From the NCBI RefSeq assembly GCF_910592395.1, contig NC_088317.1, positions 17,530,039 to 17,594,038 of the forward strand: DNA of 64,000 nt, given 5' to 3'. Below are positions 5,591 to 58,300 of the stretch, one piece after another. This DNA comes from Lineus longissimus. Lineage: Eukaryota; Nemertea; Pilidiophora; Heteronemertea; Lineidae. The notes below the pieces were generated by a model. That model had not been told where the DNA came from. It made no database searches and saw only the letters and a list, made by a program, of their open reading frames with translations. A program made the position numbers and the translations under genes. How positions within the stretch are numbered: the first letter of the stretch is position 1; each line of letters starts with the position of its first letter.

Positions 5591-8500
5591 CAAACTAACA
5601 AGCAACACCAATTAACAAAGGATGTGAAAGAGTTAACAATTTGACGGAATGCCACCTAACTATCAGCAACGATATTGCTTCAAAGCAAAAATGATGTTTG
5701 CACATAATTACTGGTATTGTAGATGTGCCTGTTCGACAAAAGACCCTGAACACTACCAAGCAACACTAATTTACAATTGACATGAGAGTATACAGTTTGA
5801 GGCAAAGCCACATAACTATTAGATAATCGCCCTCAGAAATGGTGACAATCTGACTAGCCTGAAATTCTCATTATCGACCACTCCTCAGTGGAAATGAATC
5901 CAACAAAAAATGGGGTCAATACTGTATTACCCCGATGAGAAGCACTTTATTGATGTCCCACACTCTCAACTAAGATATTTGTGCGTGTACCGGTTTGACT
6001 ACGGGCTGAAGTTGACGATGTACTCCTGACGGAGCCATTGGGTGCTTCGCCCGCTCATTGACCGAGGCATGGTGACCTGGAGACAGTGACCGGATTGGCA
6101 CTAGCTGGTCGAAGGACACTTCACAGGGCGTCAATTCGCAACTTCTCATCTTTTTAAGGCACGACCTATTAACGTGGACCAAGTTTTACCCAAAAACCTA
6201 CTCCTTACGTAGCGTGGGGTACCAACCCACCGCAGATTCAGGAGTGTGCAATGGTTTCGGAATATCCTACACCAAGTTGTGCTGCCCATTCGCAATAGGT
6301 TTGCCGACCGTCATGCACTTCCGACATCGCCATCTCTCAGGTCGGTAACAAGAAGGTGCCATGCGGCTGCAAAATTTTCCCAGAGGAGCGAGATTATGAT
6401 TATTTCAGACCGATCAGAGTGTCACAAGTTCAGAGCGAAATCACCTGACAGTTATATGGAGTTGCACCAAAATGCAGACTCTTCATTTCATTTGTAAATA
6501 GGCATCGATTATTTTTGTTACATTCAATGGACCCAGTCCTACAATCTCTGGAAGAGCCAAGTCTGCACATAATTACTGGTATGCAGATTTGTCCGCGAGG
6601 CAGAAAAGACCTGAATATTGCCACTGCTTTAGGAGTGTAGCAACAATATTGCTTCAAAGCAAGAAATGAATCTGCACATATTTACTGGTATGCAGATATG
6701 CCAGCAAGGCATCAAAACCTTCGTAAGCCCTTAATGAGCAACTGATTTATAAAATTACAAACAGGATTTATCTTACAACTGTACTGCTCCAAAGAAAGAG
6801 CCAAGTCTGCACATAACTACTGGTATGCAGATATGTCAGCGAGGCAGACAAGACCTGAACACTGCCACTGCTTAACAAGGGTACCACTGATATTGCTTCA
6901 AAGCAAAACTAAAGTATGCATATAATCGCTGGTATGCAGATTTGCCCGCGAGGCAGAAAAGACCTGAAGACAGCCACTGCTTTAGGAGTGTAGCAATGAT
7001 ATTGCTTCAAAGCAAAAATGATGTTTGCACATAATTACTGGTATTGTAGATGTGTCTGTTCGACAAAAAGACCCTGAACACTACCAAGCAACACTAATTT
7101 ACAATTGTCATGAAAGGGTATACAGTTTGAGGCAAAGCCACATAACTATTAGATAATCGCCCTCTGTACTGGTGATAATCAGACTGGCCTGAAATTCTCA
7201 TTATCGACCACTCCTCAGTGGAAATGAATCCAACAAAAAATGGGGTCAATACTGTATTACCCCGATGAGAAGCAATTTATTGATGTCCCCCACTCTCAAC
7301 TAAGATATTTGTGCGTGTACCGGTTTGACTACGGGCTGAAGTTGACGATGTACTCCTGACGGAGCCATTGGGTGCTTCGCCCGCTCATTGACCGAGGCAT
7401 GGTGACCTGGAGACAGTGACCGGATTGGCACTAGCTGGTCGAAGGACACTTCACAGGGCGTCAATTCGCAACTTCTCATCTTTTTAAGGCACGACCTATT
7501 AACGTGGACCAAGTTTTACCCAAAAACCTACTCCTTACGTAGCGTGGGGTACCAACCCACCGCAGATTCAGGAGTGTGCAATGGTTTCGGAATATCCTAC
7601 ACCCAATTGTGCTGCCCATTCGCAAAAGGTTTGCCGACCGTCATGCACTTCCGACATCGCCATCTCTCAGGTCGGTAACAAGAAGGTGCCATGCGGCTGC
7701 AAATTTTTCCCAGAGGAGCGAGATTATGGTTATTTCAGACCGATCAGAGTGTCACAAGTTCAGAGCGAAATCACCTGACAGTTATATGGAGTTGCACCAA
7801 AATGCAGACTCTTCATTTCATTTGTTCATTTTAATTACTGGTATGCAGATTTGTCCGCGAGGCAGAAAAGACCTGAACATTGCCACTGCTTTAGGAGTGT
7901 AGCAACAATATTGCTTCAAAGCAAGAAATGAATCTGCACATATTTACTGGTATGCAGATATGCCAGCAAGGCATCAAAACCTTCGTAAGCCCTTAATGTG
8001 CAACTGATTTATAAAATTACAAACAGGATTTATCTTACAACTGTACTGCTCCAAAGAAAGAGCCAAGTCTGCACATAACTACTGGTATGCAGATAAGTCA
8101 GCGAGGCAGACAAGACCTGAACACTGCCACTGCTTCACAAGTGTAGCACTGATATTGCTTCAAAGCAAAACTAAAGTGTGCATATAATCACTGGTATGCA
8201 GATTTGCCCGAGAGGCAGAAAAGACCTGAACATTGCCACTGCTTTAGGAGTGTAGCAATGATATTGCTTCAAAGCTAAAATGATGTTTGCACATAATTAC
8301 TGGTATTGTAGATGTGTCTGTTCGACAAAAAGACCCTGAACACTACCAAGCAACACTAATTTACAATTGACATGAAAGAGTATACAGTTTGAGGCAAAGC
8401 CACATAACTATTAGATAATCGCCCTCTGTACTGGTGATAATCAGACTGGCCTGAAATTCTCATTATCGACCACTCCTCAGTGGAAATGAATCCAACAAAA

Positions 8501-11500
8501 AATGGGGTCAATACTGTATTACCCCGATGAGAAGCAATTTATTGATGTCCCCCACTCTCAACTAAGATATTTGTGCGTGTACCGGTTTGACTACGGGCTG
8601 AAGTTGACGATGTACTCCTGACGGAGCCATTGGGTGCTTCGCCTGCTCATTGACCGAGGCATGGTGACCTGGAGACAGTGACCGGATTGGCACTAGCTGG
8701 TCGAAGGACACTTCACAGGGCGTCAATTCGCAACTTCTCATCTTTTTAAGGCACGACCTATTAACGTGGACCAAGTTTTACCCAAAAACCTACTCCTTAC
8801 GTAGCGTGGGGTACCAACCCACCGCAGATTCAGGAGTGTGCAATGGTTTCGGAATATCCTACACCCAATTGTGCTGCCCATTCGCAATAGGTTTGCCGAC
8901 CGTCATGCACTTCCGACATCGCCATCTCTCAGGTCGGTAACAAGAAGGTGCCATGCGGCTGCAAATTTTTCCCAGAGGAGCGAGATTATGGTTATTTCAG
9001 ACCGATCAGAGTGTCACAAGTTCAGAGCGAAATCACCTGACAGTTATATGGAGTTGCACCAAAATGCAGACTCTTCATTTCATTTGTTCATTTTAATTAC
9101 TGGTATGCAGATTTGTCCGCGAGGCAGAAAAGACCTGAACATTGCCACTGCTTTAGGAGTGTAGCAACAATATTGCTTCAAAGCAAGAAATGAATCTGCA
9201 CATATTTACTGGTATGCAGATATGCCAGCAAGGCATCAAAACCTTCGTAAGCCCTTAATGAGCAACTGATTTATAAAATTACAAACAGGATTTATCTTAC
9301 AACTGTACTGCTCCAAAGAAAGAGCCAAGTCTGCACATAACTACTGGTATGCAGATAAGTCAGCGAGGCAGACAAGACCTGAACACTGCCACTGCTTCAC
9401 AAGTGTAGCACTGATATTGCTTCAAAGCAAAACTAAAGTGTGCATATAATCACTGGTATGCAGATTTGCCCGAGAGGCAGAAAAGACCTGAACATAGCCA
9501 CTGCTTTAGGAGTGTAGCAATGATATTGCTTCAAAGCTAAAATGATGTTTGCACATAATTACTGGTATTGTAGATGTGTCTGTTCGACAAAAAGACCCTG
9601 AACACTACCAAGCAACACTAATTTACAATTGACATGAAAGAGTATACAGTTTGAGGCAAAGCCACATAACTATTAGATAATCGCCCTCTGTACTGGTGAT
9701 AATCAGACTGGCCTGAAATTCTCATTATCGACCACTCCTCAGTGGAAATGAATCCAACAAAAAATGGGGTCAATACTGTATTACCCCGATGAGAAGCAAT
9801 TTATTGATGTCCCCCACTCTCAACTAAGATATTTGTGCGTGTAACGGTTTGACTACGGGCTGAAGTTGACGATGTACTCCTGACGGAGCCATTGGGTGCT
9901 TCGCCCGCTCATTGACCGAGGCATGGTGACCTGGAGACAGTGACCGGATTGGCACTAGCTGGTCGAAGGACACTTCACAGGGCGTCAATTCGCAACTTCT
10001 CATCTTTTTAAGGCACGACCTATTAACGTGGACCAAGTTTTACCCAAAAACCTACTCCTTACGTAGCGTGGGGTACCAACCCACCGCAGATTCAGGAGTG
10101 TGCAATGGTTTCGGAATATCCTACACCCAATTGTGCTGCCCATTCGCAATAGGTTTGCCGACCGTCATGCACTTCCGACATCGCCATCTCTCAGGTCGGT
10201 AACAAGAAGGTGCCATGCGGCTGCAAATTTTTCCCAGAGGAGCGAGATTATGGTTATTTCAGACCGATCAGAGTGTCACAAGTTCAGAGCGAAATCACCT
10301 GACAGTTATATGGAGTTGCACCAAAATGCAGACTCTTCATTTCATTTGTTCATTTTAATTACTGGTATGCAGATTTGTCCGCGAGGCAGAAAAGACCTGA
10401 ACATTGCCACTGCTTTAGGAGTGTAGCAACAATATTGCTTCAAAGCAAGAAATGAATCTGCACATATTTACTGGTATGCAGATATGCCAGCAAGGCATCA
10501 AAACCTTCGTAAGCCCTTAATGAGCAACTGATTTATAAAATTACAAACAGGATTTATCTTACAACTGTACTGCTCCAAAGAAAGAGCCAAGTCTGCACAT
10601 AACTACTGGTATGATAAGTCAGCGAGGCAGACAAGACCTGAACACTGCCACTGCTTCACAAGTGTAGCACTGATATTGCTTCAAAGCAAAACTAAAGTGT
10701 GCATATAATCACTGGTATGCAGATTTTCCTGAGAGGCAGAAAAGACCTGAAGACAGCCACTGCTTTAGGAGTGTAGCAATGATATTGCTTCAAAGCTAAA
10801 ATGATGTTTGCACATAATTACTGGTATTGTAGATGTGTCTGTTCGACAAAAAGACCCTGAACACTACCAAGCAACACTAATTTACAATTGACATGAAAGA
10901 GTATACAGTTTGAGGCAAAGCCACATAACTATTAGATAATCGCCCTCTGTACTGGTGATAATCAGACTGGCCTGAAATTCTCATTATCGACCACTCCTCA
11001 GTGGAAATGAATCCAACAAAAAATGGGGTCAATACTGTATTACCCCGATGAGAAGCAATTTATTGATGTCCCCCACTCTCAACTAAGATATTTGTGCGTG
11101 TACCGGTTTGACTACGGGCTGAAGTTGACGATGTACTCCTGACGGAGCCATTGGGTGCTTCGCCCGCTCATTGACCGAGGTATGGTGACCTGGAGACAGT
11201 GACCGGATTGGCACTAGCTGGTCGAAGGACACTTCACAGGGCGTCAATTCGCAACTTCTCATCTTTTTAAGGCACGACCTATTAACGTGGACCAAGTTTT
11301 ACCCAAAAACCTACTCCTTACGTAGCGTGGGGTACCAACCCACCGCAGATTCAGGAGTGTGCAATGGTTTCGGAATATCCTACACCAAATTGTGCTGCCC
11401 ATTCGCAATAGGTTTGCCGACCGTCATGCACTTCCGACATCGCCATCTCTCAGGTCGGTAACAAGAAGGTGCCATGCGGCTGCAAAATTTTCCCAGAGGA

Positions 11501-15820: not shown

Positions 15821-16472
15821 TTTCTATGATGAAAATGTTTTTGACCTAATTTTGAGAATGAAATTGCAAACTCTTGACATAAACACACTGATTCAGTGAA
15901 CAACAAGTCCACAACAAGCTGATAACATATGTGAGGCGCATTTATAGATGCACTCCCAGCCTACCCCTGACTAGGCGGGTCTACCTTGGCTTGGGGCAAT
16001 AAAAATTGGACTAAATAAGTCATAGACCGTATGCGAAAATAAATTTCGACCATCTTTTCACAGGCAGTGCAAGTTTACCATGACATAAAAGTCATGTTTT
16101 CAATCAAATCATCACCAAAAGCATTCAAAATATTGAACATTGAAAGGCAATGACAACTAGAAGTAAATTGCTTGAATTAGCTTGAATATTTGTACTTTTA
16201 TGCCATGGTAAACAAATGTTGCATGTGAAAAGCAGTGAAAAGGGTCGTTTCAAAATGGCTAAAGGGTGTCTCTTCAAGAAAATAATGATAAATATCATAA
16301 TCATGCATGGGTAAGGGGTACATGTATGAAGAACCTGGCATAAAATCATTAACAATGATCAATTAAACAATGAACAGGGTACATTTCATCCATTGCTGCA
16401 TTGACAAATACAGTGTAAGACTAAGCTAGGCCAAGTAGCCTTGAAAAGTAGGCGGGAAAATACGCACCCAAT

Positions 16473-17645
16473 GGGTGATTTCAAAGTTGGTTTTGGTTTT
16501 GACACTGAGATTTAGTGTTAATCTTAGTGTTAATCTATGGCTATTAATTCTGCTATCAGATTAAAACTAATACTTTGTTTTCTCTGAACACTTACACTGA
16601 CACTAAAATGAGAACTTATGATAAAACCTGAATTGAAATCTGGTAAAGTGTTAGTTTTAACACCTAGATTTTGTCTTATCCTGGGGTTTAAGTGCCACAC
16701 CAACACCAAGATTACGGTCTTAATCCAAGCTTGGTGTATTGTTCTCAGCACAAGCAATGCATTTTGTATTACCAATAACACTAATTCCTTAGGCATTAAC
16801 AACAAACAGTGTTTAGACAAGGTTTTATCTTAGTATTAGTTCAAGTGGGTGATTTCAAGGTTGGTTTTTGTTTTGACACTGAGATTTAGTGTTAATCTTA
16901 GTGTTAATCTATATGGCTATTAATCCTGCTATAAAACTAATACTTTGTTTTCTCTTAACACTTACACTGACACTAAAATGAAAACTTATGATAAAACCTG
17001 AATTGAAATCTGGTAAAGTGTTAGTTTTAACACCTAGATTTTGTCTTATCCTGGGGTTTAAGTGCCACACCAACACCAAGATTACGGTCTTAATCCAAGC
17101 TTGGTGTATTGTTCTCAATACAAGCAATGCATTTTGTATTACAGATAACACTAATTCCTTAGGAATTACCAACCAACAGTGTTTAGATAAGGTTTTATCT
17201 TAGTATTAGTATTAGTTCAAGTGGGTGATTTCAAGGTTGGTTTTTGTTTTGACACTGAGATTTAGTGTTAATCTTAGTGTTAATCTATGGCTATTAATCC
17301 TGCTATAAAACTAATACTTTGTTATCTCTTAACACTTACATGACACTAAAATGAAAACTTTTACTTATGATAAAACCTGAATTGAAATCTGGTGAAGTGT
17401 TAGTTTTAACACCCAGATTATGTCTTATTCTGGGGTTTAAATGTTTGACAGACGCCAAAACCATCCCCTAGTGTACTATAAGTGTAAAACCTGGTGTGAT
17501 GCTAAAACCTACTTTGAAACAGGATTAAAACTAATACCAAGTATTACACTAACACCAAGCATGTTTTCAATCTTGGTCTAATCCGTGGTTTTAGTGTCAG
17601 ATCTGGTGTTAAAACCTCATCTTAAAACTGACTTTGAAATCACCC
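16473..17645. mobile_element. MITE-like element with TIRs and internal tandem copies
   Basis: The left end GGGTGATTTCAAAGTTGG (from 16,473) is matched in inverse orientation at the right end (CTGACTTTGAAATCACCC to 17,645). AAT flanks both ends (16470-16472 and 17646-17648), a plausible 3-bp target duplication. Inside are about two and a half tandem copies of a 370-bp module (starts near 16,473, 16,848 and 17,221), rich in GTGTTAATC and GTTTTAACAC motifs. The short open frames repeated at 370-bp spacing come from this module and are not genes. No transposase is encoded, so it is non-autonomous. Confidence 0.65.
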
Positions 17646-21185: not shown

Positions 21186-36879
<15,694 letters not shown>

Positions 36880-40035: not shown

Positions 40036-40326
40036 TTAGTGTTTTGCACTTGTGAATTCAAAAGCTGGTTGGCTGCTATTTCGCATGCAGACTTGACATC
40101 TGCTTATTCTCTGCGTCAAACTGCCTGCTTTGAGCGTCTCGGGCTGTGGGCGTGTAAATTGAGAATATCTGTCTATCGTGGCCAACCAGAAGCTGTAAGT
40201 TGTTGCGTAATAGTTGCACGTTCCGTGGCCATGGCACTCGATGAACGGAGACGGTCGGAAATCTTCCAAGCAGCTTCCAGGAGATTGCAGCGACTGTCCT
40301 GTGGCCTCGGCTCCGGCCCCTGTGTG
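40036..40326 (-). other. COL4A1: Collagen IV exon 31: NC1 C-terminal subdomain and stop
   Basis: Encodes [33 protein letters not shown] and RISRCQVCM, with five cysteines. With exon 30 these complete the canonical twelve. The lysine of TLKAG aligns with Lys211, the partner of Met93 in the sulfilimine bond. After RCQVC the chain runs on for 16 residues ([16 protein letters not shown]), longer than the short human alpha-1 end. An 1.8-kb intron separates it from exon 30b. Confidence 0.93.
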
Positions 40327-43300
40327 CTGTGAAAATGAAGAATCAAAGAATAAATGTTCATTCAAACAGTTTTGAGACAGATTGGGACGTTTGGATTGTC
40401 CTTAATAGAAACGTGTCTGTTGTGGAGCAAACTGTCCAGGAGTGATTCTCATCTGGGAAGAAGCAGTCCCGAGACTGACAGACTGATCGTCGGCAAGTGA
40501 CACATAACAATATCTTGCATAAATAATATCCAGTGGAGCTCTTCCTGACAATTCCCTGTAGACACCCACTGGACAACCATCAAAAGGTTGTATGGCTAAC
40601 TCTAACCAAAACCTCTCCTTGAAGTATTAGTCAGGGATTCTGCAATAAAGCTGAAATTCGGGTCAGACTGAACATGGACAAGCTTGTGTAACTTCCAAGT
40701 CCTTTTTATGAACGCACATGTACCCAATAGCAAGGGTGCTACAGACAGCTAGTGGTGTGTCAACCATACTTATAAAGTGTCGCTCTTACGGACATGCGTA
40801 CAGAGTGCTCCCTGATGGTGAAACCTATCATCACAGGTGCGGTGAGAAGATATATACATCTGTGTAGATTTAGCCGATTAGTGTCTCTTTCAAAGACATG
40901 CATACCGATGGCTACCAAGTGCAGTGCTGTCCCTTGCATACACATCAAGGCTATAAGTATAGAGATCCTTCACTGGAAATCATTCTACCACTACATCTCA
41001 AAATCTCCAGTTACCCAACAGTTCAACACTTAGATGATGACTTGAAAATGTTATGACAGTTCAGACATTGTTTCAATTCCACTTTTCGTATTCTGACGAC
41101 CAAATATGGATGGCTGATTCTTCTTCTTTGATGAAATCTTGTGACAATAATGAAGAACCTCCCTGTATACGTCAGGGAAGTGAGTCAGCATTGTAAGCAC
41201 TTGCAAAGTTCAGATTTCATTGGCCCCAAAGCCGAGTTGTGCTAGCGGTCCAAACCAATACTGGTCGACTTGGTATGAAATCATGCTAGTTCAAGACTTC
41301 ATTGCCACTGGTGGCAGAATCGTGCTAGCAGTCCAATACAACGCTGGCCTTTTTGGTATGAAATCAACACTTTCAAGAGATTTTCACAGCGACAACACCT
41401 TATCAACAGTAGTCAAAAGTCTCTTCTTAGTTTAGATTTCACTTTCTTGTGAGAGTTACATGTATGAATAATTTCTACATTCTTCTCAAAATAATCACGT
41501 TTTAGATGGGGTAAACAGTAATTGCTCGAATAAAAGCAGCAGAAAGCACAGCTAAACATTGTCGTAAAAGCAAAGCTCATAATTCAAATATTGGATAGTA
41601 GTATAGTACGCACTGTAAATGTAAATACTGCCAAATTTCTGTGAGCATTTTATTTAACATAAAAGTTTGGGGAAAAAAAATTAATTGAAAGAAGAAAGAA
41701 AATGCTAAGTTTACCAAAATACAAATTGCGAAAATTAGCGAATTGCAAAAATCAAGAGGCACACGAAGATTTGGCAGTTTACAGTTACATAATGAAGAAT
41801 GACTCATAGAACCCATTATGGACAGATACACCATTACTCTCCATAATGGGTAAGGCAAGAGTTTTTATCGTTTGGTTCTCAATGACCCAGTTGACCAGGT
41901 TATGAGGGCAGGGGAATACAATGAAGTAAGATTAACATCTTTTGAGGGGGATATGACCAAATGTTCATGTCGGATCACTGGAGTACCAAACATTAAAAAA
42001 GTCTTGCCTAACGATAGTTTATGATAGTGTCTGCTTTTCTAGCTCTAGGTCTACTTAGCGATGTTAGCAGCGGTATCATAACTATGATGTCATTCACAAT
42101 GTTCGATATGAACCTTACCATCACCCAGCTATAGCCAATCCAGAGGCCTCGCCAACCAGAAGGACACTTCGGGATTATCATAGTCTGGCTGTGGACAGCC
42201 ACTACCTAGACACCCGAGAGAAAATACATGTTAGTGGGCCATTAGATATTGTACGTCACCTATGGGGACTTACCATAATGAAAGTGTAGCCGATCCACAT
42301 TCCTTTCCAGCCCTTGGGGCATTCTGGGACCATCATTGTTTGGCTGTGGACAGCCATGACCTGAGCAAAATTGACGAAAACGGTGAAAATTACGATATTT
42401 GCAAATTTAGAAATGGAAAGCATGCAGTATGTCCCAGTGACATTCGAAGATGAGCTTATGAGTCATTAACGGTATTAAGTCTAAATCGCTGTAATCAACT
42501 TTACCAATCAAGACAGCACCAAATACAAAGCTCTCCAGTTTAATCATGAAGGAACCTGAAAACGGAAGCCAATTTTTCAGTGTATTTCAGTTTTCACATC
42601 TGTCATTCAGAGATGAAGTAATCATTCTCAAACCTGTGCTGGTGATTCACAGACGCTGCATCGACTGATGTATTTCTGTAGAGGCGCCCCCTGGATAGGA
42701 TTCATCATTGGCGTCATTGGTTCGGGTGTCGACAGCCAGTAGCTGTAATCGTTCCTACTGGCGACATTACAGACGTTGTTCAGATTGCAGAACATAAACG
42801 GCATTGTGCTGAACCTCTGCAGACAAGAGCCGGCAGTACCTGCGGGAAGAAAATAAAGACGACATTGATCAGCAGTGCTAAGTGGGAGTTGCTTGCCATA
42901 ATTGGCGTGAAATGGAAACTACATCGATATCGTGTATGGATTTATACCCATACAATTAACTCAAAGAGAAATGCTTAAGTATTAGAACATCAGACAGTAT
43001 AAAGTTTGTTGTCGGCGACATTAGGCTCCTGATAAGCTTCCAGGACCAAAAGCAAGCTCACCGCCATGTGGATAATACATGTACCAGTAATGAATGTTGG
43101 GTAAAGTATGCCCCTCTACCCGTTTATGAGACTCACCCAAATCCTGTCCATGCGCACGTTCATTGCCCTGAACAAACAGTAAGGAGTAGCCATCCCACAT
43201 CTTGGTCGTACCAACTGGACAATACGGTACTTCAGCCGTCTGGCTGTGCCTGCAGTGAACAACACAACTTTTGTCATCTCATATATCTTTTTAAATATAA

Positions 43301-46300
43301 CTAGCGTTCTTAGAAAAATACAATAATTACCTTTACTTCTTCGGTCTCCAAGTCCGGCAGTTTCAAATTTCATACAATTTTTGCGTCATGATGCTCTTGA
43401 CTGGAATACTGGTCTGTCTTAACAAAGTGGTGAAGCCTCTTTCAAACCATACAGAAGAACCAGGCACAAGGGTCATCAAGGAAAACAACTTTGCCTCCTC
43501 ATCTTTTAAGTTGTTCTTACGATTACCTTACCTAGTCATATAGAATCCAGCAGTTCCCCTCTTTGGTCCTGCGGGTCCCACTTCACCAGGGAAACCCTTG
43601 GAACCACCTCGGCCAATACGCCCTTCAAGACCCCTCCTGCCAAATGGCCCTTCCATACCCTTGCGACCAGCAAATCCATCGCGTCCCTCTTGGCCTGGTT
43701 TGCCTTCCTCCCCTTGTCGTCCCTTCAAGCCGGCCAGCCCTGCAAAGAGATTGTTAGTTTTTTGGAACTGTTTAAAAAGAACAATGATATATCACCTGAC
43801 CTACATGTATCACCTTTAAGTCAGGGTTGAAGAGTAAAATTCAAAGAAGGGTGTCATGCTCAAGTCAAATCGTGTTATTTTATGATGTGATAATTTAGCA
43901 TATGAAACATGAAGGGAATCCCTGAAAAATATCTTGCATCCCATTCATGTCCTAGTTATTTTTTCTGAAAAATACTCCACCAGTGATAATCCTGTCCTAA
44001 GACTAACCAATGGTAAAAGTTTCAGTCAAATCGCTGATGCACACCTTATCACTTTTTGCATGGTCTATGGACAGACACTTAACCGTTGATGAATGCTATG
44101 TAATTAGCGTCATTTCAACAACTTACCTGGCAAGCCGCTGAATCCCCGAGCCCCCTTCTGTCCGACGAAGCCTTCATCTCCTAGGTCTCCAGTCTCTCCA
44201 GCCTTGAGGGGACCAAGGGGTGGCTGTCCAGGATCACCACGCTCGCCCTTCCGACCTTGAACGCCTGGAACAGAAAGTTACATTGAATCACCCAGATGAC
44301 AGGATGAGTTTGACCCGGTGGCCTTGAAAAGTAGCTCAAATAAAAAAGTTGATATCTAGTAAGGTGTCCTTGTTAGACGCACTCACCAATGTTAATAGTT
44401 TGAAGGTGATACAGCAATTATTTCAGGACTTGTAGAACTTTAAATGGTAGTTTTGGCCCCCTTTTGACCAAGTTCAGAGTCAGTTCGGACTGAAATTTGG
44501 CCTTTGTCGAGGTGTACTTGCTATGATTGCTTGTATGCAGTGTGCTTTACTGAAGGGGTTAAACTTCTCACCTTGGAAACCAGCAAGACCTGGGCGTCCA
44601 GGAAACCCATCTTCACCGTTCAGACCTCTCAGGCCATCCAATCCAGGAAGGCCTATCTCTCCGTCCATACCAATCATACCACGGAGACCTGGTAGCCCGG
44701 AATCACCCTGAAATTACGGAAATAACAAGTTCAGCTAAACAACTATTGCAGACCGCCATAACTTTGGCAGGCGTTTTATTTTTGTGGGTTTTGTGAAAAT
44801 TGGGTAGCTTACTGCATTACTTTTATCAACTCATGTGTGTCCTACTAGAAGATATTGGCTACTCCTACAGGAGGTGATTCCAGCGCATTGCGGCATCTAA
44901 TCTTGGTCTTTGGAAAGTGGCCTTGAGGTTGGCCCACTCAGGGCGTTTTCAGTCCCGATGCTTGGTAGTGACTTCCCACCTCGGTCAAGTATCTTTCAAC
45001 TCAGTTCCTCTTTAGCAAGTCTACTTATTTCTCATGGGGTGCATTCCACAGGTAATATTTCATTATGTTTCCAGGATCTTATTCCCGATTTCATAGCCTG
45101 GCCCCAAAACTTACAGGCAAGCCTCTGAATCCGGGTAGACCAGTGAATCCTTTTGGTCCAATAGGACCATCAAACCCAGCATCTCCTTTAGGTCCTTGAA
45201 ACCCAGGGAATCCAGGCTGACCCTTCTGACCCCTTGGTCCCTCAGGGCCTGCTGGTCCATCGTCTCCATTAAAAGCAGGGCGGCCCTTCACGCCCTTGAA
45301 GCCAGCTGCGGTCTCTCCAACCTGACCCTTCAAGCCGGGAAAACCTGGGTCACCAGTAAGTCCCTTGCGTCCGGGCAGGCCATCCCGTCCATCGCGACCG
45401 GGGAGGCCAGGCTGACCCTTATCACCGGGGACACCTGCAAGATAGATAGATAGGTAGATAGACAGATGCAAAAATATCATAAGAAGGCAAGAAGTTTCAA
45501 CTGTCTCTTTTGCTTGTGATCATCTCAGCAGTAACCTTGGCAAATATCCTATTTCATCAAGTGCCCTGCAGTTGATTTGAACTTGCATCCAAGAGGTTCT
45601 GAGCCCAATCAACCATCACTACACCACCACACTTAAACCTACCTGGAAGAGGCTGGAATTGTCGCTCTGGGCGACCACCTGGTTCTCCTTCTTCTCCCTT
45701 GCGTCCATCCAATCCGACGCGTCCTGGACGTCCAATCACACCTGGCTCACCACTCGGTCCCTTCTCTGCTGGCAACCCATTTAATCCGTCGACACCAGGT
45801 GGCCCAGGGAGACCATCCTCTCCATTGGCACCAATCCGACCAAAATCGCCCCTCAAACCGAATTTTCCAACCTCGCCTCGTTGGCCGTCAAGGCCTGTAT
45901 CGCCACGAAAGCCCTTCATTCCCTTGAGGCCTACCCTTCCTGGGAGGCCATCAAAGGCCCTGATAGCTGGTAAACCTTTAGGACCTGAGAAACCAGCAGG
46001 ACCCTGCAGGGAAATATTGTAAGTGATTATTATGATAGTCAATGGGACTGTAGCAGGGGCTGGAAAATATCAAGCATCTAACAAAGAAAGCATAGACAAA
46101 ACTCGAGTTGCCCTTGTCATCCTTTTCAGCGTTGATCTAAGACCTGGGACTTCTTCTTCAAACAAAGCGACTTTTCTGAATTGTTATCAAGCAGAACTGG
46201 ACCATTTACAAGTTTTTACAAGCTGTGACTCTTGACACAGGCTATATTTTAAATAGGTCTTCTTCATGCGGACTGCTATTTACAACACTTTGGAAAACCA

Positions 46301-49300
46301 AATGGCAGGAGTACTTACCTTTGGTCCTTTTGGTCCAAATAGCCCATTCAGACCTGGATCACCTCCCTCTCCCTTATTACCAGGCAGCCCATCGCGACCA
46401 TCACGTCCAGTAACTGCATCTTTACCACGATCACCTTTCGCACCATCTTGGCCTACAAATGTTGAAAAACAAAACGTGATAAACAATCCATTTCAACACC
46501 CAGTGGGTAGCAAGAAATGGTGGCTAATTCAAAGTCCGACAACATCAAGAAACTGGAGAGAGAACTGGACACTGCCACCTTTCTACGAAAACATGGCCTA
46601 TGTGATTCTGCCATCTGTGAATGTGGTTCCTCGGCACAGAGGTCGGAACACACCCTGAAAGAATTTCCTCTAATTACCAACCAATTGGAGGCCTAGCCGG
46701 AGTCCACATCTCTCCAAGAAAAGCTATGGGGAACAGAGGCATCTTACTGCCACGTTCTTGAGGACCAACGGTGTAGAAGTTTGACCATTCAAACACCAAG
46801 AAGAAGAAACAATCAATTGCAATGTCTATGAGCTGCTTTCAGAGTTTCTTTCGCTGTGTTTCTGCCGCTCTGCATGAGTTTTTGATTTAAAGTCTAATAT
46901 TAATGGAAGAGTTCCAGGCATGGTTGTTCAAAACAAACGGGCCCAGAAAAACATTTGACTCCAATCTGTCTCATTGACAGAATTAAGAAGTTGATGCTGT
47001 TGTTGAATGTTAGAGCATTAAAACAAATGCCCTATAAATGCTCACATTATTACAAACAACTTACCTGGTTTTCCCATCATTCCTACGTCTCCCTTTTTGC
47101 CGGAAAGCCCAGGGCTGCCGTTTGGTCCTAGGGGTCCAGGGAAGCCCTTTGGCCCGTCATCGCCAGGGAGGCCATCCCCTAGGTCACCTCGGAATCCCTT
47201 GAGGCCTCGGACTCCATCGAGACCTGGTCTGCCAGGCAAGCCATCAAGACCTGAAATTTAGACAAGGGTACTGAACTGGCTATGGCATCAAAAGAAGAAA
47301 GGCCGGTTTCCAAGTCAAAGGATGATAGCTAAAGTTAGTAAGCAACCAAAGAAGAATGCCCCTACCTAACCTGACAGCAGAATGTCCATTAATCAACATT
47401 AGAAGTAAGCCATTCCGCTTAAAATTTGCTATCCATGGTCATGTGGATGTATTATAATGCTGTTTAGCCATTTTGACATGCAGACAAAACTTGAGAGGCC
47501 AGGTTTATTTCTTCTTCAGCATTCAGAGTTTTGTAACAACCCTATCTAAGGTCATGGGCTGCAACAGAATTGCCACTTTACTTCAGGTCTTTGGTGGTTC
47601 TCCTTTGCTTTGTCTTCAGTGACACTGGCTGCTGTGAAAAGTCCTGTTTTCTTTTCATCAAGGGACAGTCCAGTAGAATGTGCTCTGGTGTTCGGTCACC
47701 AAGTCAACATTTGCAAGAAGCAGCTGGAAAGAGCCCCAGTGGCCAGGGTAATGAAAATGGGCTATGGTCCTACCTAAACTACAAAACAACTAACCTGGTC
47801 TGCCATCTTCTCCCTTCTTCCCTTGAGCACTTGGTGGGGATGGATCTCCCTTGGCACCCTTCCCACCAGGGAAGCCATCCTCTCCTCTGGGACCTCGCCG
47901 GCCGTCGAAACCATTACGTCCTGGGTTCCCATCTAGTCCCTTCTCTCCAATAAGACCTGCAGAAATCGTAAAAAGATGAAACTTAATATCCCGATTGTCT
48001 AATGGTTAAGGCGTTTGCTTCGTGAATGGAAAGTCAAAGGTTTTAGCCTTGGTAGCTCTTCTGATGCAAGCGGTTGGTTAGCAGCCACCTAGGTGCCACG
48101 CTAGGTGCCTGGCCTTAGAGATAGATGTTTGGACTGGATGACACAGCCAAGCCTTTTTTCAGAAGTATAGAGTTCTGATTAATCTGAGTTTATTCATCAA
48201 ATTAGTTGCATTAATTCATGTCATGGCAGGCTTATATCAGCACACCTTTAACTTTAACACCTTGACAAAAAAAAAATTCATTGTTTCCAAAATTGAGATG
48301 AGTAAGTGAATGAGAAATATTGCGCATAAAAGTTATTTTCCTAACCTTTCCTTCCAGGGAGTCCAGAGTTTCCATCCCGTCCAGGGTTACCATCGGGCCC
48401 AGGTTTAGCCATCACCCCATCCAAACCCTTTCGACCTGGTCCACCAGCGAGTCCGGCGTCACCATGGCGGCCCGGCAGTCCATCACGGCCGGCAGGCCCG
48501 TCAAGGCCACGGCGACCACCAAGGCCATCATCACCAGGAGCACCTTTCAGGCCGTTCAAGCCAGGGAGGCCGCGCACACCATGTTCACCAGGGAAGCCAG
48601 ATTGACCTGAAATAAATAATTTTCTTCATTCATAGAAAAGTTTTTTTGGAAATGCAAAATCTGAGATTTCCGATTTTTTTTTGCACAAACCTGGATCCTG
48701 CTGGAAATTTTCTACTCGGACCAAGATTCCGCGGGATTTTTTCTACTAAGACCATGATCTCAACTAGATTTTCGCTACATTTTGTCAGATAACAGATGAA
48801 GATCCAAGTGAGATATTTTTATCAGATCATCTGTGTTATACCAAAAAGCAAATAATTACCTGGTCTGCCATTTGCTCCAGTTTCTCCTTTAAGCCCGTCG
48901 GCCCCAGGTCCACCCGTGCCCTGATCTCCTTTTGGTCCTTTGCGACCCTCGAGTCCTGGGAAGCCATCATTACCTATCAATGAAAGAATTGGGTTAGGTA
49001 AGGTTCCTCTTTTGACCTGAAAACGTTGATGTAGATTGAAGCATGGAGGTATTATTAAGATACCTCCATGATTGAAGCACTTCTTCAATCTTTAGCTTGA
49101 TAGGTTAGCACTTTTGACCCAAAACTGAGATGTAGAACAAAGAACTTTATAAAAAATTAAAAGTCTTGGAATTCGGCAGTTTACAGTAGCAACTTTCAAG
49201 GTAATAAAACTTACCCCTTTGTCCTTTGGGCCCTCTGTCCCCTGGGGGGCGTTGCTTGCCATCGGGGCCAGGCAGACCAGGGATACCTCTCATACCCTGT

Positions 49301-52300
49301 GGGCCAATATCGCCCGATTCACCAGCTCTGCCAGGAATTAATGCTTCGCCAGGGGGTCCAATTTCTCCCTGTAAGGAACATAAAAACAAAAGATTAACAA
49401 AAGATTTACTTCAGTTTAAAAGCTCTTGTGTGTGCAGTGTCCCAATGTTATTAAATATCTATCTATTAAACTAATAATAAGTTGGATTTTCACACCAATG
49501 AACCAACTTGTAAAAGCATGTTCGAAAATGATGAAAAAGACTGTTGGGTCGGAGTCTTAACCTCTCTGATAATTACACAGCCGATGCAACAAATATATCC
49601 ACAAACTCCTACCTTCTCTCCATCTAAACCTCTCAAACCATCAACGCCAGATGGACCTTTGAACCCAGGTAATCCAGGCAGGCCTCGCTCACCAGGGAAT
49701 CCAGGCAATCCCTTGAGTCCTGGTAGGCCATCGACAGACAATCCAGGCGGCCCTTGGTTGCCTTTCAAACCTTCTGGGCCAACTAGACCGGGGAAACCTC
49801 GCCTACCCTCATCGCCAGGGTCACCTGTGGAGAAAGGCAGACGCACAATAATCAACCATAACTTACAATGGATAACTCGCCGACCCAATCAGATGCCAGT
49901 CCAGGATTCAGCAAAATAGGCTGCTTCACTCTCAAAATCCTGGTCAATTTCAACGATTTGTTCAAACTTACAACATTTCAAGGTCAATTTCAAAGATACT
50001 TGTCAAATAAGACATGGCATGTGGCTACTACTGCATCCATTGGATCTACCCCTGCAATCTTTCATAAGACTAATACCGAAAAAAATCATCCTTCCACAAC
50101 AGGCCTTTGTGTGGTTCCTAAAACAAACTTAATCTCTGCTAAAATCGTCCCGTTGGTTGAGATATCATGGCCAATACATCAAATGGGTATCACCCTACTG
50201 TCCCATCGTCACATCATACAGTAAATTTGAACAGATTGCGTTGACCAAGCATCTCCCATGATCCAATACAGTGTGAGCCCACAATGCACCTTCACATTAC
50301 AAGATACAAAATTCAAAACACCGAATTAATCAATCAGCTACAAGGCTGTCTTTTTGCAAGAGTTCTCTAAACTTACCTTTCAACCCCGGCAATCCATTTA
50401 GGCCTCGTCGACCATCAGTTCCAGGAAAACCCCGATCTCCTCGCATCCGTTCCATGACGCCCGCTGGCGCAGGGTCACCTTGTACCCCTGGGGCGAGAGA
50501 AATAAGGAGATAATCGTCTTTGAAACAATAGCAAATCCCTTCAATGTTACATGTAACCTAATTCCTCTTCTCGAAGAGAACAGCCCAAAGTCCAAGCTAC
50601 AAGCATTCAGAATGCATTAAAGGGTGACTAATGTAAGGAGCCATGGAGGTGAGATTAAGTTACATGAAGTCCCCAATAGGTGCTCTCCTATCACACAGTA
50701 CATCATAACTATTCAGGCTTGTATGAGGAATATAACCATTGCTGAGTTAACCTGACCCACGCCGGTGGTATTCTAGAAACTCCTAAGATTTATCAAAGAA
50801 AGCTTTTCCCACCAAAGGGTTTTAACTGGGCCATTCATAACTAATTTTTAACCTGGTAAGCCTCTCTAGATAGGTTTTCTTTAAAATTCCACATACCCTT
50901 TGAACCATTTTGTCCATCAAATCCTGGTAAACCATTGTCACCGTCCTCACCAGTGGGGCCATTCCTGCCAGGGAAACTCTCACCCGGTTGTCCCTTTGAA
51001 CCCTCAGGTCCAACGGGACCAGGCAGGCCATTCAGGCCATCGACACCAGTGTCACCACGACTTCCCTGGAGATAAAAACATCATGTCATCAAGAAAAAGT
51101 CTATAGCTATAATGACATAACAATTTCATTTTCAGAAACCAAGTAAACAAAATTCATTCCAGTCCTTCTTCTGCATCTTATTCCAGTTTGTGCATAGGGA
51201 CCTGATTTTCACTCTGGTTGGTTGCTTCCAACCTCAGTTGTTAGGGTTTAGTTTGGAGTCTCCTGGATGTCTTGCCATCCAAGGCTCACGTGCAATTTCC
51301 TCCAAGTCAGACTGCCCGCTGGCCAAGGCTGAGAAGGCCAGTTTCTCAAAGATTCAACTCCTATAGCACAGTATTACGACCAACATGGTTTTGATTCCGT
51401 CATGTTGGAATAAGATATCAGTTGGCAGGGATCTCGTATGAATGAGTTGTTGTAATGTCAGACAGTCTCCTGGCTGGATTTTTCACCCTGACCCTGATCC
51501 AATTGACCTTACTTTTGGCAATTATTGTGAATGCTACTTTACCTTATCGCCAGCAAGTCCTGGCAGGCCATCCAGACCAGACCTGCCAGCCCTTCCAGGG
51601 AGACCAGGCAAGCCAGGCCGCCCAGGAGTACCCTTGTCTCCCTGCTCTCCATACACCCCCTTCACCTGCGGGGGGTAAATCAGTTCACCAGGGTCTCCTT
51701 TACCTCCCTTATCTCCAAGCACGCCAGGGGTGCCGACAGGACCCTAGAATTAAAGGCAATGATTCACAATCACTAAGATTTACAGTCGAACCTCTCTATT
51801 AAGGACATCCTTTGGACTGACAAATAATGCCTCAGGGAGGTGTTCTGATAACAGAGGTCCAGTGGAAAAGGAACGATCCATCTGAGACCAAACCTACATG
51901 TTCTGTCCCTAAAATATAGACACTAATCCTCCTCCAAGGTGGATAAGCAGTATGTGTGCCACTATGGCTACACACCAATTTGGGTTATAGGCCAAGTGTG
52001 GAGCACATTTGTAGGATGAAGCAATGTAGGGTTAAGTGCCTTGCACTAAGGTACAAAGACAAAACAGCGGTGATCCATCCAAGAGTTGAGTCCACAACCT
52101 GCTTATTGTGAGCCCTGCACGGACCTGAGCCCCAATACCAAGTAAAGGTTAACTCACAGAAATGCCGGTAAGACCTTTGTCTCCTAGGTCTCCTCGAAGA
52201 CCTTGTGGGCCTGGTAAGCCATCTAAACCTGGGTCTCCTTGTCTGCCCTTCAAACCTGAAAAAGTTGGTATTCATAACAAAATTGTCACAACTCCCCAAT

Positions 52301-55300
52301 ACTTACTTACTAACTTACTTAGCCTGCGTATTAGGCATCCATTCAAGAAAAAAAACGTTCTCAAACATTTCTTTTCGTAACATTTCTTGTATACGTTTCA
52401 GGGTGGTTGGTCCTGCGTACATCCCCAACATTAAGGACATTCAAGGGATTCATGTTTAAAAGGCCTCGTGAATCTCTGATGATTGCGAGATTAACATATA
52501 TGTAAGGTACAGAAGTGGTTGAAATTAGCCACTGCATTTTTCATCTCCAACAATACATACCACCAAGTCCTTCTTGTCCATCATCACCCTTGGTGCCAGG
52601 AACACCATCTGGGCAGAAACCACAATCATCACCCTTGAGGCCGTCCCGCCCGTCCAAACCAGGCAAGCCGCTCCTACCAGGTTCTCCACTCTCTCCAGGC
52701 GGTCCGCGGCCACCAGGATCACCTACTGGGCCGATCTTGTCCTCGCCTTCAACCTCCTCGCCCGGTAATCCAGGGTCACCAGTGTTACCCCTCTGACCGT
52801 CCAGACCTAAAAGAAGGAGAAAAGATGGCTCGCTAAGTCTGAAAAATCAGGATAAGCGAGAAGTTGCTTCGATTTTCTCAAACATGAGAACTGTGACAAA
52901 CAAACATCAGTAATGTGAGTTGATATCTACTGGCAATCATAGAGTAACTGCACAATGTAAACTGACTAATTTCTGTAAATCGAACCCGACGCTGTAAGTA
53001 CGTTGCCCGTATGTATATTGGTAATAACGTTTCCCAATAGGTGGCCAGTGTGGAGCCAATAAAGTCTTCGGTTTGATTCAGTATTGTAATGTTAGAGTCA
53101 CACATTGGCTGCTCAGACCACTTTGTCACGAGATGCCACAGGTACATTTAGTTTGAGAGTTGTATGTAGTTGATGCGGAAACAAATTGATATACACTCAC
53201 CAGATAAACCATCAATGCCGCGACGTCCATCCAAACCAGATGGTCCAACAATATCATCTCCAGCAGCACCCTTCTCTCCGACTCCACCGTCTGGGCCTGG
53301 TCTCCCGGGCAACCCAACTCGGCCTTCCTCCCCTGGGAGTCCAGCGGTGCCCCGCATTCCCTTCATGGAGAAACCACGTGCTCCCTTCTCTCCGTCAAGA
53401 CCGCGGTAACCAGGCTCACCCGGTTCACCTATCAAGCCACTCGAGCCAGGCAGGCCATCGCGTCCTTTCTCACCGGACAGGCCGGGTAGGCCTGGGATAC
53501 CTGGTAAACCTATTGGCCCTGGTTTGCCTTGTTTGCCTGATCCTGGTCCTGGTGGCCCCTGAAAGATTTGAAAATAACGAGAATAACTTTTCAGGGTCGA
53601 ATGTGACAAGCCAAGTTTTTTGCGGGCGTTTTACGGGATCAATTCATGAAAATAAAATTCACGAAAAGATATTTTTCTAATGCAAATAATGAAAGAAATT
53701 GCCTAGCATGCCAAATCTACAATCATGAAAATTCGTTTTTCATGAAAGTTCTGTTCAAATATCGGAGTAACACACATGAGAAGGAAGGTATTTGGCAGTG
53801 AAATTGTTGTAGCTTAATTGTAAATTGTTAGCTACTGATGTCTTTCTAAACTTACCGCATTACCACGTGGCCCCTGGCGACCATCGTAACCAGGGAATCC
53901 CCTCGCTCCTTTTGGGCCCTTCTGTCCAGTGTCACCATCAGAACCAGATGGACCCTTATCACCCTTCGGTCCGAACCTTCCAGGAGGTCCTTGCTTTCCC
54001 CTCTTGCCCTGAAGCAGGAAGTTGACAAATATCAATAAAATATATTGTTGAATCGAAACGCTGTGATGCAGTTTCACATTTCTGCAAATAAAACTTGGCC
54101 TTTGATAAATTATACAAGTCGGTGATGATTATCATGATCCAAATTTTAGATTTCAAAACTTGTCTTGATAAAATAAAATCCATTTTTGGCCACGTCAGAA
54201 AAAGCAATTGAAACTTCGAATTCACTCTGAAATCCACTGGAAATATTAGGCACACAGTTGGGCAATGAGGTTTTTCTTTATCCAGGATCCAATTGAAAAT
54301 CTTTGCTCACAGTTTTTGCAATAAAGCGTGTATGTTTCAATTACTTACCCGTCGTCCCTCCGGTCCAGATTCGCCAGACATACCCTTGTCACCTCGCCTT
54401 CCATCGATGCCCTGAATCAGGAAAACTAACCAATTATATATGGAGTCTGACACCAATAGAATGGCCAAATGGTTTTACTGAGCTTTCAAGCCGATTGACG
54501 CGGCAAATTGCATAAATCACTGGAAATGATAAATGTAAACTTAATTGACAAATAAAATTATTGAGGGTCATGATGGTATAGATTATCTTCACCAGGACTA
54601 TTTCTTGGGCTTTTCGCGCAGAGGTGTGCACTGAGTGGTAGCCCTCTCAGGGGGGGGGATCCGCACCTGCTGACTGGTTGACAGCAACCACCATGACTTA
54701 CATTAACACCAGGCAGGCCAGGCAGACCTTGAATACCCTTGTCTCCTCTGTCTCCGTCTGGGCCTTTTGGGCCTGGTGGGCCTTGGAGGACGTCCTTGGC
54801 TTGTTCTGAGCTGAGGGCACCTGGAGGCCCATCTGGTCCAACTTCACCGGCTTCTCCCTGAATTGGACAAGAAAAACATGATTTGGAATGGAACTAGGCG
54901 AAGGATAATGCTCAAACTGCTCTGACTAAAAGAAGAGATCATTGGACAGATTTTATGCCTGTGACAAAACACAGACAACAGAAAAGTAGGTCGATGTTTT
55001 TTACGTGTTAGATGCTTTAGAGCCAACATTTCAAAGAGAATTACCTCAAAATGATACGGGACGGATCTGGGGTTAAATTGATGTCTTTTACCTTTTCTCC
55101 CTTTGGTCCCTCTAAGTTGTCTCCCATGGTACCCTTGGGTCCAACAGGACCCTCGGGGCCAGGCAGCCCTTCTCTTCCATATACCCCCTGCATTCCCTTC
55201 TCCCCGGAATCTCCTGGCAGACCGTCAAAACCCTGTAGAAAAACAATTAATATCAGGATGAAGTATGTTCAAAAGTGACATGGATTGACGTACATGGGCC

Positions 55301-58300
55301 GAAAAAACCAGCTTTCAGTTTCCAAGGGGATGAAAAAAGTCCAACTATTTTTTTCACTTGTTTTTTTTCTGCTCAAAATGAAGAAACATCATCAGCCCCA
55401 AAAAGTTTTTGACTTTGAAAATTTTTCAAAATTTTGAACTTAAAAAAAAATTCAACCCTGGAAGATGAAAAAATGTCTAAGTCCAAATATTTTTTTCACT
55501 TTTGCCTACAATCCAAGATGGCCACCAAAATCAAAAATGGCTGCCAAATGACCTAAGTGGAGTAGGCAAGTCCAGCATGAGGACCAAATATACCATTGTA
55601 TATCATTATGTAATGCACCAGCAAACAGCTTCAAAATGAGTTTTCTTCACCCTTGATCAGGACATCTCCCTTGTTGTCTTATTCAGAATGAATCAAGCCG
55701 TGACCCTAAATAGGACTTGGTGAAACAATCAGACTTACCGGAAATCCAGGCCGTCCTTTTTCACCACGCTCTCCTTTGAGTCCTACACCCCTACTGACGA
55801 TCTCACCGGGGTCTCCCTTCAGTCCCCTCCTACCATTGCGTCCTTGCGTCCCATCAGGTCCAGGGACACCGGGCAGACCTCGGAGGCCGTCTTGACCTTT
55901 CGTGCCGTTGCAACCATCGAAGCCTTGAGGTCCTTTTGGTCCTTCCAAGCCATCTAAGCCCTATTGAGAAGAAATTGGATACACTTAAGCTCACACCACT
56001 TCATATTGTATCGCTAGTTGAGAATCAGTACTCTCAACTGATCACTGTCAAAGTCATCAGTAACATTCTTCTCTATGCACAATTCAGAAACATTCGGTTC
56101 AAGTGAATGTTCAGTTTTAACAATACCATCAGAAAAAGTCAGTCCTGCTGGAAGCCATATCTCATGCCAACGCTGTTCCTTTAAAATTATAGCATGCACT
56201 TCACCCACTGCGAAAGGGTTAAGGAAAACCACTCCTGTTTCTTTTAAGTTTTTTAGGTTCTCTTGCCATTTTAGGTGGTCGAAAGTATTGTGGAAGGAAC
56301 AGATCACCTTTGAAAAATATTCCGATACTCTAATTGGTATTTTGACGGATTTTCAGGAATAAAAAAGTTAAGATTTACAAAAACCACTCTTAGACACCCA
56401 ATTAAATATTTTATCAATTTCATGAAAACAATTGTGCTCAGTTACGGTGGTCAAGTACTGCTGTGACATACTGTCTGAGTGTAGCCAGGATGTTCTTCAA
56501 CATGGAAGGAAATAACACAGTGACCTTACAACGTCTGCTCATTATGATTAAGATGCACCACTTCCACAGAGCTTCGTTTATTTGGTACGTGGGAAACTCG
56601 AGATTTCATAGTTGGTTACAGAATTTGTCACTAGGGTGAATCAGTATTGCTTGAAAATTATGGATGTCGCAACCTGAAGTTATCTGCTAAAGTGTGATAA
56701 TATGATGGGTACATGGGAATTCGAGATTTCATAGGTTGGTGCCTAAAGATATCACCAGGGGGCATAGGAGATATGTCATGTCAAACTTGTGATATGCAAA
56801 ATATAAGTGATACACTTCCTAATAATCAAAACTATGAAATTCCAGAAAACCGGAACTCATTTGTTAAAGGGAGTTTTAAGATTATTTTCACACCCGTTAT
56901 CCATAATCTCAAACCAAAGTCTAATGTGCCAAAGATTTAAGGATTAAACGCCCTTCACTTAGACCAAGTGGTGCCATGCGTGGTCGTTAAATCATCAGCA
57001 AATATTTGTCCACGCGCAATCTCGAGATAGAGTCAAAAGATAAGAAACACGACTCCCCTTCGCCCAATTTCTGGCCACAACGGGTTATCATATTAACCCA
57101 TTCAGTGCAGAGTGCTCATATGAGCCTGACTTTGCCATCAACCACTTGCTACAGTCCTTCATCACAGTACCTCCCCTTCAGTTGGGTGGTGTATTGTGAT
57201 GATGTCATCACAGTACCTCCTCTTTGGGACTTACCGGAACTCCAGGGACTCCAGTGAAACCTGGCGGACCTTGCTGACCCTGCAAAGATAAATCACCCGT
57301 TAAGTTATAAGATAGAAGACAACTAACTTACTTGGTCCTCCTTGTGCCTGCAGGGCACATAAGGCTTCAATCTTCAGTCCCCACGCTGTCCGGTTGGCAG
57401 TCTGTCTGTGGATGTTTCCCCAGGTCAGACCAAGCTGACTCATCTTCTTTTCTACTGTTCGGCCTCGGCCTCAGACGGCCTCGATTCCTTTTCCCATCAG
57501 CTGTCCGATGGAGTGCTGTCTTCGGGAGTGTGGTTGGGGGCATTCGACACAACTCCAGCGTCAAAAGACAAAGCGGCAAAATTCAAGGCTGCAATCAACT
57601 TGTCAAAACTGCCTTTGAGAGGAGTTACCAAGCTTACAAGTTTGCTACCTCATTGAGGATTGAAATAAAAAAATATCTGTAACATTTGTTTTTGAAGACC
57701 ACCTACCCTGATCCCTTTGTGTCCTCTTCGGCCGTACTCTCCAAGTTTTCCCTTGGGCCCTTGTACGCCATATTGCCCTTCTGGACCTGGGAACCCGGGT
57801 AGACCAGGGGGTCCCTGCAGACCCGTGATACCTTGTACGCCCTAAAAACAAGAAAATACAATATTTTGTTGATCGAAATAGCAAAATAACAACAACATGT
57901 GTCATATCCCATCAACTTTAGATCGGGTTGCAATACTGCTGCAATATTTGATACTGTACTGTAACCCTTCATATTTTTGTGCTCCTTTTTTGCAGTTTCC
58001 CTCTTAGTATGACAGAACTTACCGGTTGTCCCTTATGTCCCTTACAGTCACATCGCTTCGGACCCTTGCATCCTTTACACGCCTGAAAATAGAGACAGGA
58101 ATAAAAGATGTCAACAATATCAAAAAGAGACAAAAATGATGGAATTTATTCCATGAGGGCACTAGCGCAGTCAAGGCGTGTGACAAAAATTACTTTTTCT
58201 CTCTTACTGCCCTGGCTCAAAACTAGATGGTTAATAAGAAGTGGCACGAAATCTGTCTAGGCCTAAACAGGAAACGGGTGACAAATTCGTGGGCGGGCAA

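What the first reader, a model, noticed from the sequence alone, without database searches (positions are those of the whole stretch)
42119..42360. Apparent mutually exclusive exons inside the collagen IV NC1 domain
Two adjacent 87-nt exons (42274-42360 and 42119-42205) encode alternative 29-residue versions of the same segment, which opens the NC1 C-terminal subdomain. Both have intact acceptor and donor, both are phase 0 to phase 0, and both keep the subdomain cysteine, HSQT and WIGY. They differ at 10 positions, including Glu versus Lys next to the cysteine and Thr-Phe-Ile versus Ser-Trp-Val at the end. Using both, or neither, would break the fold while keeping the frame. NC1 drives chain selection and hexamer assembly, so one gene could make two chains with different assembly surfaces. 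Mutually exclusive exons are known for a nematode collagen IV gene near its N-terminus. I do not know of a case in NC1.
Basis: partly seen in the sequence, partly recalled or inferred. Interest (0 to 1): 0.85.

Follow-up and report, generated by a model that had tools for sequence, protein, structure and literature searches.

The report
Alternative collagen IV NC1 exon pair
A marine worm's gene for basement-membrane collagen carries two alternative versions of one exon, so one gene could swap a surface hairpin in the domain that joins collagen molecules together; the DNA supports this well, but no RNA evidence was available.

Summary
In an alpha1-like collagen IV gene of what is almost certainly the bootlace worm Lineus longissimus, two adjacent 87-nt exons, both phase 0/0 with intact splice sites, encode alternative versions of NC1 residues 117-145, differing at 10 of 29 positions. 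Synonymous divergence is saturated and protein divergence low, so both look constrained. One exon gives 12 NC1 cysteines; both or neither give an odd number. The intron between them is 68 nt, shorter than the 94 introns sampled elsewhere in this genome (minimum about 102), which points to steric exclusion.

The exon is a hairpin cassette: strand beta1', the surface loop known in alpha3(IV) as the Goodpasture EB region, and a strand leading to the SM1' trimer hairpin. Five of the ten differences lie in that loop. The known chloride-ring and sulfilimine positions lie in constant exons. Each twin breaks one member of a nearly invariant Ser-Phe pair (Thr142 in A, Trp143 in B). 'Different assembly surfaces' is therefore only partly supported; a changed recognition hairpin fits better. 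No report of alternative exons in NC1 was found in the open-licence library. Transcripts could not be tested.

The parts
42274..42360 (-). Twin exon A, 87 nt, phase 0/0, NC1 residues 117-145 (Thr142, Phe143)
   Evidence: Pfam C4 1.3e-8
42119..42205 (-). Twin exon B, 87 nt, phase 0/0, NC1 residues 117-145 (Ser142, Trp143)
   Evidence: Pfam C4 2.5e-8
42206..42273 (-). 68-nt intron between A and B; ACTAAC at 42230-42235 is a branch-point candidate (its A at intron position 43, 25 nt from the acceptor)
42634..42839 (-). Constant NC1 exon upstream of the pair (weak donor CAG|GTTTGA)
40036..40326 (-). Constant last NC1 exon with stop codon
   Evidence: Pfam C4 1.2e-27
43137..43249 (-). Constant NC1 exon
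43532..43739 (-). Exon joining the last Gly-X-Y stretch to the start of NC1
43561..57841 (-). Region holding the Gly-X-Y exons of the same gene (exon ends approximate)
   Evidence: home-made spliced model

Best explanation
A tandem exon duplication in an alpha1-like collagen IV gene made a pair of mutually exclusive exons. Each encodes the first hairpin of the NC1 C-terminal subdomain: strand beta1', the EB loop, and a strand (beta2'/beta3') that leads to the SM1' trimer hairpin. The spliceosome does not join A to B because the 68-nt intron is too short for this genome's machinery. A, with the better donor and acceptor, is probably the default, and B is used where A is repressed. The gene thus makes two alpha1 chains that share the same chloride-ring and cross-link positions but show different outer hairpins and a different Ser-Phe motif next to the trimer-packing hairpin. 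Shown: the sequence, frame, constraint, intron length and place in NC1. Inferred: that both are expressed, that choice is exclusive, the steric mechanism, which is default, and the effect on recognition.
For: Frame, length and splice sites of both exons. dN 0.21-0.23 with dS saturated; 0 of 20,000 unconstrained simulations kept 19/29 identity. 12 cysteines with one exon, 13 with both, 11 with neither. The A-B intron of 68 nt compares with a minimum of about 102 nt in 59 kinesin-gene gaps and 113 nt in 35 collagen introns. The segment is 117-145 by ungapped alignment to PDB 1li1 and strand-loop-strand in a homologue's model. Positions 121-123, 128, 130, 131 and 140, identical in 133 of 133 homologues, are kept by both twins.
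Against: No transcript, peptide or second nemertean genome was seen. Thr142 (0 of 164 homologues) and Trp143 (0 of 164) are unprecedented in the sample and could mark relaxed constraint on a little-used exon. The B acceptor is only middling (54 of 231). Introns of 60-70 nt are spliced routinely in flies and worms (recalled), so steric exclusion is not certain; the myosin calibration could not be run.
Confidence: 0.72

Rival explanations
1. One twin is an old duplicate that is rarely or never spliced in; the other does all the work.
For: Each twin departs at one nearly invariant residue. B has the weaker acceptor. By whole-NC1 alignment score A is nearer the family, 89 against 12 of 134 with 33 ties.
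Against: Both keep every other invariant position and both splice sites at saturated synonymous divergence. By identity over the segment B is the nearer one, 99 against 16 of 133 with 18 ties, so neither is plainly the decaying copy.
Confidence: 0.17
2. Both exons are often included together, or chosen without exclusivity, giving a longer NC1 with a duplicated hairpin.
For: Frame is kept with both or neither, and both splice-site pairs are intact.
Against: Both would give 13 cysteines and a repeated strand-loop-strand in a compact fold. No homologue with a doubled segment was seen among the listed hits, though isoforms are clustered at 90% there. The 68-nt intron is below all sampled introns.
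Confidence: 0.06
3. Assembly artefact or collapsed haplotypes.
For: Tandem near-copies are a usual source of such errors.
Against: The copies are 68% identical, differ mainly at third positions and share nothing beyond the splice sites; the assembly is from long reads with Hi-C (PMC8593623, passages).
Confidence: 0.02

Closest known systems
let-2 of Caenorhabditis elegans, collagen IV gene with a mutually exclusive exon pair regulated by the STAR protein ASD-2
   Same: Collagen IV gene, two alternative exons (PMC3585155 and PMC3469465, passages).
   Different: The let-2 pair lies in the N-terminal part of the chain, outside NC1 (recalled); here it lies in NC1. Regulation here is unknown.
Mammalian alpha-tropomyosin exon pair, excluded sterically by closeness of donor and branch point
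   Same: Close tandem exons with a donor near the branch point; the principle is stated in PMC3585155 (passage), which cites Smith and Nadal-Ginard 1989 (not seen).
   Different: Here the branch point is only a sequence candidate, and the intron as a whole is very short.
Vertebrate alpha1-alpha6(IV) NC1 paralogues, whose EB loops (127-141) differ
   Same: Variation of the same surface loop on one fold (PMC8093946, passages).
   Different: There the variants are separate genes; here they would be splice forms of one gene.

Membership tests
Mutually exclusive tandem exon pair | Adjacent homologous exons of equal length and phase | tested here: met
   87 nt each, phase 0/0, 19/29 aa identical
Mutually exclusive tandem exon pair | Both exons under purifying selection with intact splice sites | tested here: met
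Mutually exclusive tandem exon pair | A barrier to joint inclusion (steric, U2/U12, frame, or regulated) | tested here: inconclusive
   Intron of 68 nt against sampled minima of about 102 and 113 nt; frame is no barrier, because joint inclusion keeps it
Mutually exclusive tandem exon pair | Transcripts carry exactly one of the two | not testable with these tools
   No RNA data
Collagen IV alpha1-like chain | Gly-X-Y exons followed by an NC1 of two C4 subdomains with 12 cysteines | tested here: met
Collagen IV alpha1-like chain | Closer to alpha1/alpha5 than to alpha2 NC1, with a head-to-head alpha2-like partner | tested here: met
   Single-chain bit scores alpha5 327, alpha1 325, alpha2 264 (constant exons plus exon A); partner on the opposite strand. 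No tree was built
let-2-type collagen IV exon pair | Pair lies in the N-terminal part of the chain | tested here: not met
   Pair lies in NC1; the position of the let-2 pair is recalled

The most novel reading that the evidence does not exclude
By splicing, one alpha1 gene supplies two NC1 recognition types of the sort vertebrates made with separate genes. The choice of EB hairpin, together with Thr142-Phe143 or Ser142-Trp143 at the entry to SM1', sorts chains into different protomers or gives basement membranes of different tissues different binding sites.
Probability: 0.25. Interest if true: 0.82.

Novelty: new variant of a known kind. Interest (0 to 1): 0.62.

Why it matters
NC1 decides how collagen IV chains trimerise and join into networks. 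A splice switch inside NC1 would be a second way, besides gene duplication, to diversify basement membranes in an animal with a single alpha1/alpha2 gene pair. It would also be a natural swap experiment on the hairpin that contains the EB region of Goodpasture disease.

Tried and rejected
Literature. Ten searches were made. Those aimed at this question: ('mutually exclusive exons', 'collagen IV', 'NC1') held 0 papers; some searches gave lists of which I saw 6 of 6, 20 of 49, 10 of 45 and 15 of 4,351, with no such report among those listed. The library holds open-licence papers only, so this is weak evidence of absence.

A regulatory reading through STAR-family CUAAC sites, as for let-2, was considered. 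ACTAAC occurs once in the A-B intron, but ACTAAY is no commoner in the window than expected (65 found, 65.7 expected), so it is kept only as a branch-point candidate.

Competing RNA structures: of six inverted repeats in 40327-42840, five lie in the long intron after B and one is a palindrome in the intron before A, so no docking model is offered.

A relative carrying Thr142 or Trp143 was sought in three protein searches. None was found in 164 of 166 listed proteins where the position could be read (P0013 and P0148 not covered). Only the best 120 of 854 hits were listed. P0070 has His143; by eye its NC1 resembles that of the snail protein P0028.

Hidden short introns in kinesin matches were looked for by eye at two places with excess length; none was seen. 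108 of the 150 kinesin matches were typed into. The myosin calibration could not be run.

A twin in the partner gene or elsewhere near: none in the window or in L009, L011, L012, L013, and no further C4 match in the genome.

Full report
What is there. The window lies on contig 10 of a 391-Mb, 30-contig assembly. The lengths of its 19 large contigs agree within 0.01 Mb or so with the chromosome table of the Lineus longissimus genome paper (PMC8593623, passages), for example 29.44/29.45, 25.59/25.60, 19.40/19.41 and 13.63/13.63 Mb. The species is therefore almost certainly this nemertean. The minus strand carries a collagen IV gene. Its Gly-X-Y exons run from about 57.8 kb down to 43.56 kb. NC1 is encoded by 43739-43532, 43249-43137, 42839-42634, one of the twin exons, and 40326-40036 with the stop. 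The chain is alpha1-like: single-chain PDB scores are 327 bits for alpha5, 325 for alpha1 and 264 for alpha2 (no tree was built). An alpha2-like partner lies on the opposite strand, head-to-head, beyond the window. The Pfam C4 family gives 9 matches in the genome, five in this gene and four in the partner.

The twin exons. A (42360-42274) and B (42205-42119) share 59 of 87 nt and 19 of 29 residues; 17 of 28 nucleotide differences are at third positions. dN is 0.21-0.23; dS is undefined by one method and 22 by another, that is, saturated. In 20,000 unconstrained simulations from exon A to 28 differences, 38% stayed open and none kept 19/29 identity. The similarity ends at the splice sites. A and B are 19/29 identical to each other, while they share 20/29 and 22/29 with a chain of the hemichordate Saccoglossus (P0017, named alpha-2(IV)-like in its record) and 18/29 and 19/29 with the partner gene. 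The duplication is therefore old, or diverged fast and then froze. The partner has one copy. It lacks an intron before residue 117 but has the same phase-0 intron after residue 145, so the 3' boundary looks older than the 5' boundary.

Why exclusive. One exon gives 12 cysteines in NC1, both give 13, neither gives 11. The intron between them is 68 nt, with a branch-point-like ACTAAC whose A is intron position 43. Elsewhere in this genome the shortest of 59 kinesin-gene introns, estimated from profile gaps, is about 102 nt, median 278 (108 of 150 matches used), and the shortest of 35 collagen introns flanked by exons of 60 nt or more is 113 nt (home-made gene model). Steric hindrance between close exons is a stated basis of mutually exclusive splicing (PMC3585155, passage). 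The upstream donor is weak (25th of 233), the A donor is the best GT of the region (1st of 233), and the A acceptor is better than B's (18th against 54th of 231). From this I infer that A is the default and B is chosen where A is repressed.

What the swap changes. By ungapped alignment to PDB 1li1 the exon is NC1 residues 117-145. In a model of a bird alpha1 NC1 (P0024, numbering one lower; mean pLDDT 74.7) the segment is strand 117-121, loop, strand 134-145 in alpha1 numbering. Confidence is 89-94 for P0024 blocks 111-140 but only 56 for 141-150, so the end of the exon is poorly modelled. The loop contains the EB region, residues 127-141, surface exposed in the hexamer (PMC8093946, passages; the limits are from the title of its reference 14). 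The exon ends where SM1' (144-154) begins, the hairpin that lines the trimer tunnel and is disordered or altered in abnormal oligomers (PMC6211539, section 14). The ten differences are at 118, 126, 127, 129, 132, 135, 137, 142, 143 and 144. In 133 homologues with the full segment, eight of these positions vary, some only conservatively. Two do not: 142 is Ser in 164 of 164 and 143 is Phe in 163 of 164 readable homologues, of 166. A has Thr142-Phe143 and B has Ser142-Trp143, so each twin breaks one member of a nearly invariant pair. The chloride-switch and chloride-ring positions (PMC6527180, passages) and Met93/Lys211 (PMC6211539, passage; that these form the sulfilimine bond is recalled) all fall in constant exons; of these, 64, 66, 76, 78, 93, 175, 189 and 211 carry the usual residue, while 179 is His and 187 is Thr. 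The most direct effect is a changed outer hairpin, with a possible effect on trimer packing through 142-144. A change of chain selection is possible but not shown.

Results that point the other way. By whole-NC1 alignment score A is nearer the family (89 against 12 of 134, 33 ties), by identity over the segment B is nearer (99 against 16 of 133, 18 ties); neither twin is clearly canonical. The changes at 142 and 143 could mark relaxed constraint. Introns of 60-70 nt are normal in some invertebrates (recalled), so the steric step rests on the sample above. No RNA, peptide or second nemertean genome could be reached.

What is known. let-2 of C. elegans has a regulated exon pair in a collagen IV gene (PMC3585155, PMC3469465, passages; its place in the chain is recalled). 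The review of COL4 gene evolution (PMC12141075, searched by term only) has no occurrence of 'splic', 'isoform' or 'nemerte'; the Drosophila NC1 paper (PMC10694668, searched by term) has no 'splic'. Searches listed no report of mutually exclusive exons in NC1 among the entries seen. I rate the pair a new variant of a known kind.

Noticed in passing
window 22338-24194, minus strand: Exons of another gene downstream on the same strand: 22338-22880 has a cwf21 domain (PF08312, 2.1e-7). With the DLDG repeats of 23730-24194 (no Pfam match) it looks like the splicing factor U2SURP (recalled).
   Followed up: partly
window 6803-10827: Four arrays of 109-nt tandem units start about 1.26-1.30 kb apart (6803, 8065, 9327, 10624), as if a longer unit holding them were itself repeated.
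   Followed up: no
window 16472-17440: Tandem array of a 370-nt unit, 2.6 copies, 93% matches.
   Followed up: no
window 40036-40326: In this alpha1-like chain NC1 residue 179 is His, where Arg/Lys is given as the group 1 chloride ligand, and 187 is Thr, where Asn/Asp is given.
   Followed up: partly
protein P0070 (database hit): An NC1 protein with His at position 143 (GYSHIL), the only one of 164 readable homologues without Phe there; by eye it resembles the snail protein P0028.
   Followed up: no
window 41231-41366: In the intron after exon B, a 53-nt direct repeat, 77% alike, copies 83 nt apart.
   Followed up: no
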